Source: Chloroflexota bacterium (GTDB taxonomy: Bacteria; Chloroflexota; Dehalococcoidia; UBA1151). Taken from it: a stretch of DNA of 5,112 nucleotides. The DNA lies in NCBI GenBank assembly GCA_022561735.1, contig JADFQR010000119.1:1-5112 (forward strand), in the 5' to 3' direction. Below the pieces are notes generated by a model. That model saw only the letters and a list, made by a program, of their open reading frames with translations, was not told the origin of the DNA and made no database searches. Below are positions 1-5,112 of the stretch, piece after piece. Made by a program: the position numbers and the translations under genes. Within the stretch, counting starts at the first letter, position 1; every line of letters starts with the position of its first letter.

Positions 1-555
1 TACGTGAGCGCCGGCTCCTCGGCGATGCCCCACAAGCGCAACCCGGAGCTCTGCGAGCGTATCTGCGGACTGGCCCGGCTCGTACGCGGGCACACCGTCA
101 CGGCCCTCGACAACGTCGCCCTGTGGCACGAACGGGACATAAGCCACTCCTCGGCAGAGCGGATGATCCTCCCGGACTCGTCGCTCGCGGTCGATTACAT
201 CCTTGACCTGTTCACCGGCGTCATCCGGAACATGCGGGTGTTCCCGGAGCGCATGATGGCCAACCTGGAGTTGACCCGGGGGCTGCCCTTCTCGCCGCGC
301 GTCATGCTCGCGCTTGTCGAGTCAGGCATGGACCGCACCGAGGCCTACAAGAAGGTCCAGGCTATCTCAATGCGAAGCTGGGACGAAGGGCTGGACTTCC
401 GCGATCTGCTTCGCGCAGACACGGGTGTCAAAGACGCCATCGGCGGTGATGAGCTGGATGATCTCTTCGATTACAAACACTATCTCCGGTATACCCGGCA
501 CACCTACCGCCGGTTGGGATTCTCTATCCCGGCTAACCCGGTGACGCAGGATTGA
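1..555 (+). CDS. purB: Adenylosuccinate lyase, C-terminal part (5' end outside window)
   Basis: This cytosolic enzyme of purine synthesis releases fumarate twice: from SAICAR to give AICAR, and from adenylosuccinate to give AMP. The frame is open from base 1, so the gene starts outside the window. About 184 residues remain of a family that is usually 430-475 long. Residues 5-15 of the fragment read GSSAMPHKRNP, the fumarase/aspartase superfamily signature; the flexible loop carrying this motif holds the catalytic serine. The C-terminal lyase domain follows, with RGLPFSPRVMLALVE (around residues 93-107) and AYKKVQAISMRSW typical of bacterial PurB. A TGA at 553-555 ends it at a normal C-terminus. 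purC starts 7 bp later, so the two are very probably co-transcribed and consecutive in the pathway (PurC makes SAICAR, PurB cleaves it). Identification is secure; only the N-terminal half is unseen. Confidence 0.97.
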   Translation, partial: YVSAGSSAMPHKRNPELCERICGLARLVRGHTVTALDNVALWHERDISHSSAERMILPDSSLAVDYILDLFTGVIRNMRVFPERMMANLELTRGLPFSPRVMLALVESGMDRTEAYKKVQAISMRSWDEGLDFRDLLRADTGVKDAIGGDELDDLFDYKHYLRYTRHTYRRLGFSIPANPVTQD

Positions 556-562
556 GCCAACG

Positions 563-1471
563 TTGCCTGCAATAAGCGAGACGAACTTTTCCGGCCTGAT
601 TCACCGCGGCAAGGTGAGAGACACGTACGACATCGGCGACGGCCGTTTGTTGATGATCGCCACGGACCGGATATCGGCGTTTGACGTCGTTCTGCCTTCG
701 CCCATACCTGACAAGGGAACCATCCTGGCGCAGATGTCACGGTTCTGGTTCGATCTCACCGCAGACGTGATGCCGAATCACGTCATCGGCATGGCTGATG
801 ACGATGAAGCCCTGGCCGGAGTACCACGCACCGGCGCGCTCGCCGAACTGCCGGACGACATGCGCCGCCGCTCGATGGTTATCCGGCGGGCGGAACGTCT
901 GGATATTGAGTGCGTGGTACGCGGCTACATCACCGGAGCCGGCTGGGCCGAGTATGCCGAGTTCGGGACCCTCAACCGTCAGAAGCTTCCGGAAGGGATC
1001 GTGGAGGCGCAAAAACTTGAGCCGCCCCTGTTCACGCCGAGCACAAAGGCGGAAGAGGGTCACGACATGCCAATGACGCCATCCGAGGTCGTCGATCTGG
1101 TCGGGGCGGAGATGGCGTCACGGCTTGAAGAGGTGTCGCTCAGGATATTCCAGGTTGCCCAGCAGCACGCCGCCGGTCGCGGCATGATTATCGCCGACAC
1201 CAAGATGGAGTTCGGGCTGATCGACGGCGAGCTGACCTTGATCGATGAGCTGTTCACCGCGGACTCAAGTCGATTCTGGTCACAAAACGACTACAAACCC
1301 GGGTCTTCCCCACCGGCATTTGACAAGCAGTTCGTGAGAAACTGGTTGCTGGAAAGCGGATGGGACCGTGAACCGCCTGCACCCGATCTGCCGGAAGAGA
1401 TCGTTCGTATGACACGTGAGAGATATGTCCAGGCGTACGAGCGCCTGACCGGCGAGACATTCGTAATCTGA
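563..1471 (+). CDS. purC: Phosphoribosylaminoimidazole-succinocarboxamide (SAICAR) synthase
   Basis: PurC joins CAIR and aspartate using ATP to make SAICAR, the substrate of the upstream PurB. The 302-residue product is full length for the longer bacterial/yeast-like form. Visible motifs in order: GKVRDTY (16-22), TDRISAFD (34-41), ECVVRGYITGAGW (116-128, family signature region), FTPSTKAEEGHD (157-168), IIADTKMEFG (209-218, second signature) and LIDELFTADSSRFW (226-239). In the first signature the residue after TG is Ala where the PROSITE-type pattern, as I recall it, has Ser. The start is TTG at 563. The same frame has a stop at 542-544 and no ATG, GTG or other TTG between, and no ATG precedes the conserved GKVRD block, so TTG is the only good choice. 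AGG at 548-550 could be a weak ribosome site inside the purB 3' end. The purB stop is 7 bp upstream, which suggests translational coupling. Confidence 0.96.
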   Translation: MPAISETNFSGLIHRGKVRDTYDIGDGRLLMIATDRISAFDVVLPSPIPDKGTILAQMSRFWFDLTADVMPNHVIGMADDDEALAGVPRTGALAELPDDMRRRSMVIRRAERLDIECVVRGYITGAGWAEYAEFGTLNRQKLPEGIVEAQKLEPPLFTPSTKAEEGHDMPMTPSEVVDLVGAEMASRLEEVSLRIFQVAQQHAAGRGMIIADTKMEFGLIDGELTLIDELFTADSSRFWSQNDYKPGSSPPAFDKQFVRNWLLESGWDREPPAPDLPEEIVRMTRERYVQAYERLTGETFVI

Positions 1472-1513
1472 ATCCTGCCAGCAAGGGCAGTCGAGACCAT
1501 CACCGGGGGATAA

Positions 1514-2197
1514 ATGCCAGACCGAATCGCGAGCACAAGGACGGAGAACCGGCGAGGTATGTCACGCGGCGCGCTACGGGCCGAGCGTCGCAGCAGGTCT
1601 GACTCTCGTAAGCGGCGGAAGCGTTACATCTACACGGCGGTCGGGTCGATCATCGCCCTTCTTTTCATCGGCAGCCTGCTGGTGCCCGGCGGTTCAGGCC
1701 ATAGCAGCAGTTCAAACGCGAGCTTGAACACCGGGGGGCCGGTGGAGATCCTCCAGGACCAGGGCAGAGGTCATATAGAACTTGGAACATCCGGAGGGCC
1801 GTACTTCACCACGCCGGCGGCGTCTGGACCCCACTACGGCGTCACGCCTTTGAATCAACACGAGAGTGCGCCTTTCGGCGCACCCGCGCGCTGGGGCACT
1901 TACGGGCAAACTCTCGGAGACGAGGTGCAGATCCACAACCTGGAACACGGCGGAATCGTCATCAACTACCGCTGCGAAGAAGACTGCGCAGAGCTGGTGG
2001 GGCAGCTTGAGACCTTGATACCGTCAAGCCACGCCCAGTTCATCCTGGCGCCCTACCCGAACATGGACACGCGCATCGCCATCACATCATGGCGGCACAT
2101 CCTCCAGATGGACGAGTTTGACGCCGACCAGATAAACGAGTTCATCGACGCCTACCTGGACCGCGCTCCTGAGAGCGTTCCGGGCAACCTTTTCTAG
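1514..2197 (+). CDS. Membrane-anchored DUF3105 domain protein
   Basis: The biochemical function is unknown. The 227-residue product has a very basic N-terminus (many Arg/Lys in residues 9-37), one hydrophobic segment at about 38-57 (YIYTAVGSIIALLFIGSLLV), a Ser/Gly linker, then a domain matching DUF3105 as I know it: SGPHYG (104-109), HNLEHGGIVINYR (141-153), APYPNMD (179-185), ITSWRH (190-195) and a final FIDAYLDRAPE. The basic N-terminus before a single helix predicts an inside N-terminus with the domain outside the cytoplasmic membrane. His107, His141 and His145 are candidate metal or active-site residues; Cys154 and Cys158 form a CxxxC-like pair. Two starts are possible: ATG 1514, with GGGGGA only 3 nt upstream, or ATG 1559 (residue 16), with GGAG 12 nt and GAGG about 1 nt upstream. 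It lies 42 bp after purC and 11 bp before purS, so it is probably co-transcribed with purine genes despite no known link. Confidence 0.88.
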   Translation: MPDRIASTRTENRRGMSRGALRAERRSRSDSRKRRKRYIYTAVGSIIALLFIGSLLVPGGSGHSSSSNASLNTGGPVEILQDQGRGHIELGTSGGPYFTTPAASGPHYGVTPLNQHESAPFGAPARWGTYGQTLGDEVQIHNLEHGGIVINYRCEEDCAELVGQLETLIPSSHAQFILAPYPNMDTRIAITSWRHILQMDEFDADQINEFIDAYLDRAPESVPGNLF

Positions 2198-2211
2198 GAA
2201 TTAGCACGTTG
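2195..2211 (+). promoter_or_regulatory. Ribosome binding site and TTG start of purS
   Basis: AGGAA at 2196-2200 overlaps the TAG stop (2195-2197) of the DUF3105 gene and sits 8 nt before TTG at 2209-2211. The purS frame has a stop at 2170-2172 and no ATG or GTG before the conserved region, so this site decides the start. The overlap of stop and ribosome site suggests coupling with the upstream gene. Confidence 0.7.
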
Positions 2212-2457
2212 TTCCTGGCAACCGTTCACGTCACTCTTAAACCAACCGTCAACGACCCGGAAGGGTTGACCATTGCGCGCGCCCTGGCGACTCTCGGCTT
2301 CGACTCGGTCGAGAGCGTCAGGTCCGGGAAGTACATCGAGATCCGGCTCGATGAATCAGATCGCGACAGGGCCGAGCAGCGGGTTACGGAGATGTGCGAG
2401 AAGCTGCTCGCCAACCCGGTGATCGAGCGTTTCAGCTTTGATCTGCAACCGGCCTGA
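2209..2457 (+). CDS. purS: Phosphoribosylformylglycinamidine synthase subunit PurS
   Basis: PurS is the small non-catalytic subunit that assembles with PurQ (glutaminase) and small PurL to convert FGAR to FGAM; it is thought to help ammonia transfer between them. The 82-residue product has the usual family length and pattern: a first strand ATVHVTLKP, then VNDPEGLTIARAL (15-27), LGFDSVESVRSGKYIEI (29-45), and a C-terminal MCEKLLANPVIERFSFDL (62-79). Its presence implies a separate small-type PurL and PurQ, since the large single-chain PurL needs no PurS. In many genomes purQ and purL follow directly. Here nothing coding follows on this strand for more than 2 kb and a repeat array begins about 110 bp downstream, so the partners must be elsewhere. 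The start is TTG 2209, the only in-frame option. Confidence 0.95.
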   Translation: MFLATVHVTLKPTVNDPEGLTIARALATLGFDSVESVRSGKYIEIRLDESDRDRAEQRVTEMCEKLLANPVIERFSFDLQPA

Positions 2458-2537
2458 GTCTCCAGCCATCAGACGGCCGGGCAAGAACCCCAGGACGAGT
2501 TGGCGACGTTTGGCGGCGCGTCCCCGGGCAGATCAAG

Positions 2538-2557
2538 GCCCACCCCATTCCGTGGGC
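2538..2557. terminator. Possible hairpin downstream of purS, no T-tract
   Basis: GCCCAC (2538-2543) pairs perfectly with GTGGGC (2552-2557) across an 8-nt loop, 80 bp after the purS stop. There is no run of T after either arm, so a classical intrinsic terminator is not supported. It is the cleanest simple hairpin between purS and the repeat array. Confidence 0.25.
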
Positions 2558-2570
2558 GCATAGCAATCAC

Positions 2571-2755
2571 CGGCCCTTCGAGAGCCTCAGGGCGCTAGCT
2601 TGTGTCCTGCCCCCTGGCTGCCGAGGGTGATCCCAGCGCCTGATCCTTCCTCAACACAGTGTCCTGAGGCCCTCGTGTGTCCTGAGGCGCTCAAGTGTCC
2701 TGAGGCCCTCGAGTGTCTTGAGGCGCTCAAGTGTCCTGAGGCCCTCGAAGGACCG
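2571..2755. repeat. Imperfect inverted repeat bounding the array (arms 2571-2593 and 2733-2755)
   Basis: The reverse complement of 2571-2593 matches 2733-2755 at 20 of 23 positions, sharing CCTGAGGC, CTCGAAGG and the flanking CCG. The second arm is the last unit of the tandem array plus seven bases. Between the arms lie 139 bp containing the other four units. The arrangement could fold into one long stem in RNA or a cruciform in DNA. It resembles REP/BIME-like or MITE-like intergenic elements, but no target-site duplication or transposase is visible. Whether it is mobile is inference. Confidence 0.7.
2659..2748. repeat. Five tandem 18-bp units with alternating A/B pattern
   Basis: Five contiguous 18-bp units start at 2659, 2677, 2695, 2713 and 2731. 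The consensus is GTGTCCTGAGGCNCTCRA. Units 1, 3 and 5 carry GGCCCTCG; units 2 and 4 carry GGCGCTCA, giving a 36-bp higher-order period. Unit 4 has one extra change (CTTG for CCTG) that makes TTGAG-GCG-CTCAA, a 5-bp stem with a 3-nt loop; the others form shorter GAG/CTC or TGAG/CTCA stems. No spacers separate the units, so this is not a CRISPR array. The 18-bp period keeps frames open on both strands, giving a CPEAL-type hexapeptide repeat that I do not regard as a protein. Confidence 0.9.
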
Positions 2756-2780
2756 GTGCCAGCGAGCACACCTGTTTCGC

Positions 2781-2809
2781 GGGCGATTACGATCTGACGC
2801 TATTCGCCC
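2781..2809 (-). terminator. Weak inverted repeat just after hisB stop
   Basis: GGGCGA (2781-2786) is complementary to TCGCCC (2804-2809), with a 17-nt interior that could add two A-T pairs. It starts 7 bp beyond the hisB stop on the - strand. The loop is long and there is no T-run on the - strand side, so a terminator role is only a possibility. Confidence 0.2.
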
Positions 2810-2815
2810 TCGGCC

Positions 2816-3415
2816 TTACAGCGCGCCCTTGGTGCTGGGGATCGTGTCCGGGTTCCGCTCGTCCAGCTTCACGGCGTCCCGCAGCGCCCGTCCGAACGCC
2901 TTGAAAGCGGACTCGATCACGTGGTGCTCGTTCGTGCCGGCCATAACGCGCAGGTGGATGTTGAACCGTCCTTCTATGGATGCTGACTCAAAGAAGTGCC
3001 GCGCGAGATCGGTCGGGAACTCACCGATATTGTTGTTCGACGCCAAGTCCACAACCGGGTAGCCGCGACCGCTGAGATCGATGACGCACATGGTCAACGC
3101 CTCGTCCAGCGGCACGAACGCGTGTCCCATGCGCACGATGCCCCGTCGTTCTCCCAGCGCCTTGTCTATGCAGCGGCCCAGGACGATCGCCGTGTCCTCC
3201 GCGATGTGATGCGGGCCGGAAGCCGTGTCGCCGGAAGCCCGGACCGAGAGATCCAGTGACCCGTGGCGCGCCAGTGCGTCCAGCATGTGGTTCATGAACC
3301 CGTTCGGGGTGTCTATCTCAGAGCGGCCGGAGCCGTCAAGATTCACCGTTATAGAGATATCGCTCTCGCCGGTCTTCCGTTCGATCGTGGCCGTACGGGT
3401 ACTGTCCGCAGTCAT
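2816..3415 (-). CDS. hisB: Imidazoleglycerol-phosphate dehydratase
   Basis: HisB dehydrates imidazoleglycerol phosphate to imidazole-acetol phosphate, the substrate of HisC. The 199-residue product matches the monofunctional family length, with no N-terminal phosphatase domain. Seen in order: NLDGSGRSEI (25-34), NGFMNHMLDALARHG (38-52), HHIAED (69-74), LGRCIDKALGERRGI (79-93), PLDEAL (102-107), DLSGR (113-117), GTNEHHVIE (160-168) and C-terminal IPSTKGAL (192-199). His43, His69, His70, Glu73, His164, His165 and Glu168 correspond to the metal-binding and catalytic positions of the family. Two neighbouring positions are unusual: the common DHML is NHML, and the Asp usually two before HHxxED is replaced (GPHH). 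The ATG at 3413-3415 has AGG a few bases upstream. It follows hisC by 203 bp on the same strand, the expected pathway partner but a wide gap for an operon. Confidence 0.95.
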   Translation of the reverse strand: MTADSTRTATIERKTGESDISITVNLDGSGRSEIDTPNGFMNHMLDALARHGSLDLSVRASGDTASGPHHIAEDTAIVLGRCIDKALGERRGIVRMGHAFVPLDEALTMCVIDLSGRGYPVVDLASNNNIGEFPTDLARHFFESASIEGRFNIHLRVMAGTNEHHVIESAFKAFGRALRDAVKLDERNPDTIPSTKGAL

Positions 3416-3424
3416 TTCGCCTGT

Positions 3425-3440
3425 CTTTCAAGCTTTCAAG
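3425..3440. repeat. Tandem 8-bp duplication upstream of hisB
   Basis: CTTTCAAG occurs twice back to back (3425-3432 and 3433-3440), 10 bp upstream of the hisB start codon, creating AAGCTT at the join. On the - strand it reads CTTGAAAGCTTGAAAG directly before the ribosome site region. It may be simple slippage duplication. Confidence 0.75.
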
Positions 3441-3514
3441 TAGTTGCGCCGGAGACGCGGTACGAGGATTCTCAACGGTCGCTTCAGTTGCCGGGGAATG
3501 GCCTGAGCAATGGT

Positions 3515-3532
3515 CCGGGGATAACGCCCCGG
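3515..3532. other. GC-rich hairpin in hisC-hisB gap
   Basis: CCGGGG (3515-3520) and CCCCGG (3527-3532) form a perfect 6-bp all-GC stem with a 6-nt loop ATAACG. No T-tract follows on the - strand. It could act as an RNA processing or stability element between hisC and hisB, or be a remnant of an intergenic palindrome. Confidence 0.5.
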
Positions 3533-3566
3533 GGTGCAAGGGAGTCGCGTGTCCCCGTTACCCGGA

Positions 3567-3606
3567 TTGCGTCCCGGTAGTTGCGTCCCGGTAATCGCGT
3601 CCCAGG
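3567..3606. repeat. 14-bp tandem repeats after hisC stop
   Basis: TTGCGTCCCGGTAG (3567-3580) is followed at once by TTGCGTCCCGGTAA (3581-3594) and a degenerate third copy TCGCGTCCCAGG (3595-3606). The array begins 12 bp beyond the hisC stop on the - strand. Its unit differs from the 18-bp array downstream of purS, so it is a separate repeat family. Confidence 0.85.
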
Positions 3607-3618
3607 GCAGCGCCAACT

Positions 3619-4475
3619 TCAGACCAATTCTGACAGAACGTCCAGCACACGTGTAGTCTCGTCCGGCGTTCCCACGCTGATCCGCAAATGATGCCTGAGA
3701 CGCTCATCCGGGAAAGGTCTTACAAACACGCCCTTTTTGACGAGCGATTCAAACAGATCAGCCGCCAGGTGATTATCGAATCGAGTCAGCAGGAAGTTGG
3801 CATGGGAGGGCGCATAGGAGACCCCGTCCATTGCGTCAAACGCCTTTTCCATGCGGCGCCGCTGTTCAAGTAGCACCTTGACCTTGTGCATCAGCTTATC
3901 TCGATGCTCCATCGTCGCCAGCAACGCCGCCTCCGCTGCGATGTTCACGTTGTACGGGTTCTTGATGTCCATCAGCCGGCTGACGATCTCTGTCCCGGCG
4001 ATCATGTAGCCGACGCGCAATCCGGCGATCCCTGCCCACTTGCTGAACGACCTGAGAACAACCAGGTTTTCATGCTCGGGAATCAGGTGCGCCAGCGTCT
4101 GGCCTGAAAACTCGAAGTAGGTTTCATCAACAACGATCACGAACCCGAGCTTCAGCAACGCCCGGGCCTGTTCCTCAGGAAGGATGTTGCCCGTCGGGTT
4201 GTTCGGCGATGCCAGGAACACGATCTTCGTACGGCCGTCGGCCTCGCGGGCGATGGCGTCTACATCCACCTCGAAGGCGTCGTCGCGCTCCACCGAGACG
4301 ACTTCGGCATCAGCGACCCGGGCACAGAAGTGATACATCCCAAAGGTCGGTTTGCAGTCCAGAACGCGGTCGCCCGGAGCGACGAACAGCCGCATCAGGA
4401 GATCGATCATCTCGTCTGCGCCGGCTCCGGCGAGGATCTGTTCGGCAGGGTGCCCCGTGTATTCGGCGCGTCGGA
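3619..4475 (-). pseudogene. hisC: Histidinol-phosphate aminotransferase, N-terminally truncated
   Basis: HisC is a PLP-dependent class I/II aminotransferase that converts imidazole-acetol phosphate to histidinol phosphate. Family similarity begins abruptly at AEYTGHPAEQIL (codons near 4467) and runs to a normal C-terminus: SPNNPTG, VDETYFEFSG, the Schiff-base lysine in SFSKWAGIAGLRVGY, and HHLRISVGTPDE. About 281 recognisable residues remain of a usual 350-370. The missing 70-75 residues normally hold the NENP block and the RYP segment, which contribute to substrate and cofactor contacts across the dimer. The open frame continues to a TTG at 4519-4521, adding about 18 residues that are only the antisense of the neighbouring isomerase gene, then meets a stop at 4561-4563. 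No intact N-terminus exists here. It is either a broken gene or a mis-joined assembly; as shown it would probably be inactive. Confidence 0.85.
4468..4475. other. Breakpoint joining two 5'-truncated, divergent genes
   Basis: Recognisable HisC sequence on the - strand ends at about 4468, and recognisable isomerase sequence on the + strand begins at about 4472. Both genes lack their 5' parts at the same place. No insertion sequence, duplication or tRNA lies at the join. This fits one junction of an inversion between two formerly co-oriented genes, or an artificial contig join. Confidence 0.7.
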
Positions 4476-4864
4476 TGCGAGATTTCATCGACGCGGTCGG
4501 CTCGAAGGCGCTCGGGGCCAACCAGGATCCCGTGAACTTCGTGGCCAGTCTCGACGACGCCTATGACCTGGAGCCGTTCATCCAGGAGTTCTTCGACCTG
4601 CTGGGCGATGTCACGTTTGGCGCCCACGCGAAGGATTTCAGGATAGCGGACACGCTGCTTGTGCGGCTCGAGGAAGTAGAGATTGGGCACGGCCTGATCC
4701 CGCACGATTTCTTCCTGACTCAGATGCAGAAGCACGCCCCCGACGCTCATGTGCTTATCGAGCACATTCCGCCGAACAAGTTCGCCAACGCCATTCGGGA
4801 GTTCAAGGTGTATTCAGATCGCGCTGGCATAGTCTGGGACGAGCCGAAGCCCCCGCGGGTGTAG
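4472..4864 (+). pseudogene. Sugar-phosphate isomerase/epimerase (TIM-barrel), C-terminal remnant
   Basis: This is the last 130 or so residues of a xylose-isomerase-like TIM-barrel protein (COG1082 type, usually 270-300 residues). Counting from ATG 4475, it shows NQDPVN (16-21), AHAKDFRI (50-57) and LIEH (94-97). In this superfamily (for example tagatose 3-epimerase) Asp18, His51 and Glu96 would be three of the four divalent-metal ligands; the fourth, a Glu, lies in the lost N-terminal half. Upstream of 4472 the frame stays open but only as antisense of hisC, with no barrel sequence. There is no clear ribosome site before ATG 4475. The substrate cannot be told from the fragment. The following SDR gene on the same strand, 64 bp on, suggests a former sugar or polyol catabolic operon. 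Confidence 0.8.
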
Positions 4865-4912
4865 ACTCCCGGCCACGATTCAGATTGCGCGATGGCCGCG
4901 CAAGATATCTTC

Positions 4913-4931
4913 AAAGGACAAAATCAAGATG
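4913..4931 (+). promoter_or_regulatory. Strong ribosome binding site for the SDR gene
   Basis: AAAGGA at 4913-4918 lies 10 nt before ATG 4929-4931. It is the best Shine-Dalgarno match in the window and fixes the SDR start, which also agrees with the usual short distance to the TGxxxGIG motif. Confidence 0.7.
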
Positions 4932-5112
4932 AGCCTCGATGGCAAGCGAATCATTCTGACGGGCGGCGCGACGGGAATCGGCCGTGCGACGGCGATCAGG
5001 GTCGCCTCGGAAGGCGCGAAAGTGGCCTTCTTCGACGTTAATGACGCGGACGCCGAATCGACGCTGGCTACGATCACTGATGCCGGCGGTGTGGCGCGGT
5101 ACTGGCATGTCG
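4929..5112 (+). CDS. Short-chain dehydrogenase/reductase (SDR), N-terminal part (3' end outside window)
   Basis: This is the start of a classical SDR oxidoreductase using NAD(H) or NADP(H). Sixty-one residues are visible. LDGKRIILTGGATGIGRATAI contains the Rossmann glycine motif TGGATGIG (residues 11-18). VAFFDVND follows, with Asp36 at the end of the second beta strand, the position that usually favours NAD over NADP. The catalytic YxxxK lies beyond the window, so substrate and activity cannot be judged. The frame has no stop to base 5112. It is 64 bp downstream of the isomerase remnant on the same strand. Together they suggest a carbohydrate, polyol or related catabolic operon, though SDRs are too diverse for a firm role. 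Confidence 0.9.
   Translation, partial: MSLDGKRIILTGGATGIGRATAIRVASEGAKVAFFDVNDADAESTLATITDAGGVARYWHV

What the first reader, a model, noticed from the sequence alone, without database searches (positions are those of the whole stretch)
4440..4530. Two genes beheaded at the same point: hisC (-) and a sugar isomerase (+) fused head to head
Seen: on the - strand, HisC similarity ends going upstream at AEYTG near 4467, about 70 residues short of a normal N-terminus, and a stop closes the frame at 4561-4563. On the + strand, isomerase similarity starts near 4472 with about half the barrel missing. Both losses coincide within roughly 10 bp. Inference: an inversion with breakpoints inside two co-oriented genes gives exactly this pairing of 3' halves; the reciprocal junction would pair the two 5' halves facing each other. 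If real, the lineage may be a histidine auxotroph or have a second aminotransferase. If not, the contig is chimeric.
Basis: partly seen in the sequence, partly recalled or inferred. Interest (0 to 1): 0.7.

Follow-up and report, generated by a model that had tools for sequence, protein, structure and literature searches.

The report
Chimeric contig joining two Chloroflexi lineages
The two beheaded genes sit head to head because the contig joins DNA resembling two different related Chloroflexi lineages at a 17-base shared stretch, most likely a sequencing or assembly artefact and not a real inversion.

Summary
On the - strand hisC stops matching its relatives at 4467, 80 of 362 residues short. 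On the + strand an isomerase-like gene starts matching at 4451, 155 of 292 residues short. The matches overlap by 17 bases (4451-4467). The left arm (purB to hisC) is collinear with MAGs G001-G007, where hisC is full length; P0001, 98.9% identical to the stub, is also full length (362 aa). The right arm (isomerase, SDR) is collinear with G008/G039 at 86/85% DNA identity, whose own HisC is only 62-65% like the window's. In the left-arm clade the isomerase is either not found or only 45-52% identical. Separate trees put the two stubs in different, well-supported clades. Both stubs keep the dN/dS of intact genes, and one search found no reciprocal junction. Best reading: an inter-lineage chimeric contig, formed by template switching or misassembly at a chance short overlap. 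Reads were not available, so a real, very recent recombination is not excluded.

The parts
1..4467 (.). Left arm: purB 3' part, purC, DUF3105, purS (+), hisB, hisC stub (-); groups with the G001-G007 clade
   Evidence: Collinear with L001 at 83.6% (1-567) and 81.6% (564-4467) DNA identity; same gene order in L001-L007
2816..3415 (-). hisB, intact, 199 aa
   Evidence: Pfam IGPD E 9.4e-54; 86-92% identical in L001-L007
3619..4467 (-). hisC 3' part: 282 codons plus stop; 80 N-terminal codons missing
   Evidence: TIGR01141 284.5 bits against cut-off 276.55 for the open frame 3619-4521; 3 of 282 residues differ from the 362-aa P0001
4451..4467 (.). 17-bp zone shared by both arms; the breakpoint lies in it or at its edge
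   Evidence: Base-by-base comparison with L001 hisC (16 of 17) and the L027 isomerase (14 of 17)
4451..4864 (+). 3' part of a sugar-phosphate isomerase/epimerase-like gene (PF01261): 137 codons plus stop; 155 codons missing
   Evidence: 93.4% identical to G008 and to P0121, 90.5% to G039; PF01261 31.0 bits, just under the cut-off 31.1, for the open frame 4352-4864, while full-length P0121 scores 89.5
4468..4563 (-). Isomerase DNA read antisense as a false N-terminal extension of the hisC frame, up to the stop at 4561-4563; holds the spurious TTG start at 4521
   Evidence: Translation; hisC relatives no longer align beyond 4467
4929..5112 (+). Start of a short-chain dehydrogenase/reductase gene, native neighbour of the isomerase
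   Evidence: adh_short E 9.8e-10; 93-97% identical to the SDR beside the isomerase in G008/G039, 54-62% in G002, G003, G004, G007
4451..5112 (.). Right arm: isomerase stub and SDR start; groups with G008/G039
   Evidence: 86.5% DNA identity to L027 (G008) over 666 aligned positions; G039 85%

Best explanation
The window is an inter-lineage chimeric contig. DNA from a G001-like Chloroflexi genome (inside hisC, antisense) was joined to DNA from a G008-like genome (inside the isomerase gene, sense) at a short sequence that both carry by chance, TGCCCCGTGTATTCGGC or nearly so. The likely routes are template switching during amplification or library making, or a misassembly at low coverage. Shown: two arms of different affinity, each collinear with intact loci, and a 17-bp shared zone at the join. 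Inferred: that the join arose in vitro or in silico rather than in a cell.
For: Left arm (2816-4480 tested): 75-83% DNA identity in G001-G007; in G008, G039, G014, G024 only pieces at 66-70%. Right arm (4440-5112 tested in 14 genomes): 86/85% to G008/G039, 69% to G024, 73-75% in pieces to G014, shorter pieces at 68-71% to G013 and G093; of G001-G007 and G011 none matches except G001 over the first 28 bases (4440-4467), which is its own hisC. hisC tree: window with G001-G007 at 100/100. Isomerase tree: window with G008, G039, G014, G024 at 98/97. P0001, differing at 3 of 282 residues, is a full 362-aa HisC. 4 of 100 genomes searched carry an isomerase at least 71% identical to P0121, and they are G008, G039, G014, G024 (the same hundred genomes). 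dN/dS of the stubs against relatives (hisC 0.058-0.082, isomerase 0.072-0.083) lies within the range of intact pairs (0.052-0.114) and the stubs have no inner stops (five hisC and three isomerase relatives used). No reciprocal half seen in one search. Chance 17-mers expected between two 2.7-Mb genomes at an assumed 60% GC: about 1,650; 19-mers about 112. [quoted passage not shown]
Against: No reads, coverage or own genome were available, so artefact is inferred. The overlap is 17 bp, at most 19 by my codon argument, shorter than the k-mers that common assemblers start from (recalled), so a bare shared k-mer is not an easy cause; a chimeric molecule fits better. P0126, a DUF1697-isomerase fusion, breaks the same isomerase family within about ten codons of this join, which could hint at a real fragile site. 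The genomes are MAGs of undisclosed completeness, so the lack of an isomerase in G001, G005, G006 is weak by itself.
Confidence: 0.9

Rival explanations
1. Real illegitimate recombination between lineages: a cell of the left-arm lineage took up G008-like DNA, which joined inside hisC at the 17-bp shared stretch and broke hisC.
For: The join sits at a microhomology, as a real end-joining event might; both lineages are Chloroflexi by record titles.
Against: Needs a very recent event that destroys a biosynthetic gene: neither stub shows relaxed selection, and a HisC 98.9% identical to the stub is intact. Only one join of such an insert is in the window, and none of the seven nearest loci L001-L007 shows it.
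Confidence: 0.06
2. Inversion inside one genome with breakpoints in hisC and a co-oriented isomerase gene.
For: The head-to-head pairing of two 3' parts has the right geometry.
Against: In the hisC-side clade the isomerase is only 45-52% identical to the stub (G002, G003, G004, G007) or not found at E 1e-10 (G001, G005, G006). The right arm, SDR included, groups with another clade. No 5' isomerase half above 72% identity was found among proteins of about 90-285 aa (48 hits, 329 candidates).
Confidence: 0.02
3. Natural short genes: a short HisC starting at TTG 4521 and an isomerase starting at ATG 4475.
For: Both frames are open from those codons; the truncated HisC still passes the TIGR01141 cut-off.
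Against: The 120 listed HisC hits are 340-401 aa; the five closest isomerases are 292 aa; residues before AEYTG are antisense isomerase DNA.
Confidence: 0.01

Closest known systems
Interspecies chimeric contigs in metagenome assemblies (PMC7881036 and PMC8171044, passages seen)
   Same: Non-overlapping parts of one contig match different species, the criterion used in PMC8171044.
   Different: Here the parents are known only through relatives, and no coverage data are at hand.
Amplification (MDA) chimeras (PMC1855051, abstract and passages seen)
   Same: Inverted joining of two sequences where a freed 3' end anneals to a randomly occurring complementary segment.
   Different: There 348 of 475 chimeras joined segments under 10 kb apart in one genome (table); here the partners look like two genomes. 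Whether this sample was amplified is unknown.
HisC (TIGR01141) and AP_endonuc_2 / sugar phosphate isomerase (PF01261)
   Same: The two stubs are pieces of these families by sequence.
   Different: Both lack their N-terminal parts: 80 of 362 and 155 of 292 residues.

Membership tests
Inter-lineage chimeric contig | Two arms with different nearest lineages | tested here: met
Inter-lineage chimeric contig | Each arm collinear with an intact locus in its own lineage | tested here: met
   Left: L001-L007. Right: L027 and G039
Inter-lineage chimeric contig | No real molecule spans the join (reads, coverage step) | not testable with these tools
   No reads; no own genome held
Amplification (template-switch) chimera | Short shared sequence at the join | tested here: met
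   17-bp zone, 16 of 17 and 14 of 17 bases to the two relatives
Amplification (template-switch) chimera | Sample DNA was amplified | not testable with these tools
   Origin of the window unknown
Intragenomic inversion | Both halves come from one genome | tested here: not met
   Arms group with different clades; tested on relatives, since the window's own genome is not held
Intragenomic inversion | Reciprocal junction of the two 5' halves | tested here: inconclusive
   None found in one protein search limited by length; own genome not available
Functional HisC | Complete N-terminus as in relatives | tested here: not met
   80 residues missing against P0001
Functional AP_endonuc_2 isomerase | Complete TIM barrel | tested here: not met
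   155 of 292 residues missing; profile match only 131-240 of 249

The most novel reading that the evidence does not exclude
The join is real: DNA moved between two Chloroflexi lineages by illegitimate recombination at a 17-bp microhomology, very recently breaking hisC in a population that otherwise keeps it. The isomerase gene around codons 155-165 may be a recurrent break site, since P0126 breaks within about ten codons of the same place.
Probability: 0.06. Interest if true: 0.4.

Novelty: not a real feature. Interest (0 to 1): 0.06.

Why it matters
It warns against reading auxotrophy, gene fusion or inversion from one environmental contig, and shows a quick test (nearest kin of each arm, plus the overlap at the join) that separates chimeras from inversions. 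If the join were real, it would be a microhomology recombination between lineages caught very early.

Tried and rejected
Inversion in one genome: rejected because the arms have different nearest lineages. Natural short HisC or isomerase: rejected from hit lengths. Five isomerase hits of 100-164 aa (P0187, P0201, P0203, P0215, P0223) have longest contigs of 550-1,398 bp; I take them as contig-end pieces without having checked their DNA. Pseudogene decay: no sign in dN/dS; the one odd residue is Ala for a Phe seen in 103 of 104 isomerase rows, codon 4517-4519. Reciprocal junction: not found. Exact junction pattern in viral contigs: 0 matches. 5' halves of both genes elsewhere in the window: only chance-level matches, best E 0.87. 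Paper search for SAR202, sugar phosphate isomerase and Chloroflexi together: 0 papers. The motif count used a pattern that does not match even the window's own repeat and says nothing.

Full report
What is there. The window carries purB (3' part), purC, a DUF3105 gene and purS on +, then hisB and hisC on -, then an isomerase-like gene (PF01261) and the start of an SDR gene on +. No whole genome is held for it, so what follows rests on relatives. Genomes are named by handle: G001-G010 hold loci L001-L010. By record title these are Chloroflexi or Dehalococcoidia MAGs. G039 has a hisC contig of the same length as that of L012 and is probably the same MAG (inference).

The observation. HisC similarity ends at 4467, and the frame beyond it is isomerase DNA read backwards to a stop at 4561-4563. 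Against P0001 (362 aa), 80 residues are missing; the remaining 282 differ at 3 places. Isomerase similarity starts at 4451; 155 of the 292 residues of P0121 are missing. The 120 HisC hits listed, of 5504 passing, are 340-401 aa long. Of 105 isomerase hits, 93 are at least 279 aa. So two genes are truly beheaded at one point.

Left arm. In the seven nearest loci (L001-L007) hisC is full length and stands in the same order with hisB, purS, DUF3105, purC and purB. DNA identity with L001 is 83.6% over 1-567 and 81.6% over 564-4467.

Right arm. The isomerase P0121 matches one in G008 at a rounded 100%; one residue differs between the two printed sequences. Window 4451-5112 is collinear with that locus at 86.5% and with G039 at 85%, and the SDR follows the isomerase there too. 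G008 and G039 have their own HisC, 65% and 62% identical to the window's; G039's is cut by its contig end, so 239 residues were compared. The hisC-side genomes G002, G003, G004 and G007 have a divergent isomerase (45-52% to the stub) with a divergent SDR beside it (54-62%). G001, G005 and G006 show no isomerase match at E 1e-10; these are MAGs of undisclosed completeness. Among 100 genomes searched around G001 (the same hundred came back around G008) G008, G039, G014 and G024 have an isomerase 71-100% identical to P0121; the next is 62%.

Trees. With 16 rows, the HisC stub groups with G001-G007 (100/100). With 13 rows, the isomerase stub groups with G008, G039, G014 and G024 (98/97). G001, G005 and G006 have no row in the second tree. 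The two arms therefore differ in ancestry. A transfer could also give this, but it would have to be very recent: both stubs show the dN/dS of intact genes (the hisC test used G001, G002, G004, G005, G006, the isomerase test G008, G039, G014), and a near-identical HisC is intact.

The join. Over 4451-4467 the window matches L001 hisC at 16 of 17 bases and the L027 isomerase at 14 of 17; the mismatches are codon third positions. On either side of that zone the alignment follows one relative only. If the true parents encode the residues that their kin do (Leu before AEYTG in P0001; Val before CPVYS in P0121), the identical stretch cannot exceed 4450-4468, 19 bp; this is my inference from codons. 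Stretches of this size are common by chance between two genomes: about 1,650 17-mers and 112 19-mers expected for two genomes of 2.7 Mb at an assumed 60% GC. They are long enough for a 3' end to prime on a foreign template but shorter than the usual starting k-mers of assemblers (recalled), so I favour a chimeric molecule or read carried into a low-coverage assembly over a pure graph error.

Literature. [quoted passage not shown] PMC8171044 (passages): contigs whose non-overlapping parts hit different species are counted as chimeric.

Against this reading. There is no read evidence. The true parents are not in hand. P0126 (208 aa) joins a DUF1697 start (profile match 1-90) to the same isomerase family (match from 82), some five to ten codons downstream of this join; it may be another chimera or a hint of a fragile site, and I did not obtain its DNA.

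Verdict. An inter-lineage chimeric contig, confidence 0.9. No statement about histidine auxotrophy can be drawn from it.

Noticed in passing
window 2658-2748: Tandem array of 5.1 copies of an 18-bp unit (AGTGTCCTGAGGCCCTCG; better as 2.5 copies of 36 bp, 96% match) between the convergent genes purS and hisB; L001 has about two related copies there, L002 and L003 none by eye.
   Followed up: partly
P0126 (208 aa, longest contig 1123 bp): DUF1697 N-terminal part fused to the C-terminal part of the same isomerase family, breaking within about ten codons of the window's join; probably another chimera.
   Followed up: partly
window 4517-4519: Ala replaces a Phe seen in 103 of 104 aligned isomerase rows, by two adjacent base differences from G008; possible sequence error near the join.
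   Followed up: no
window 3566-3603: Short direct repeat (2.7 copies of ATTGCGTCCCGGTA) between hisB and hisC.
   Followed up: no
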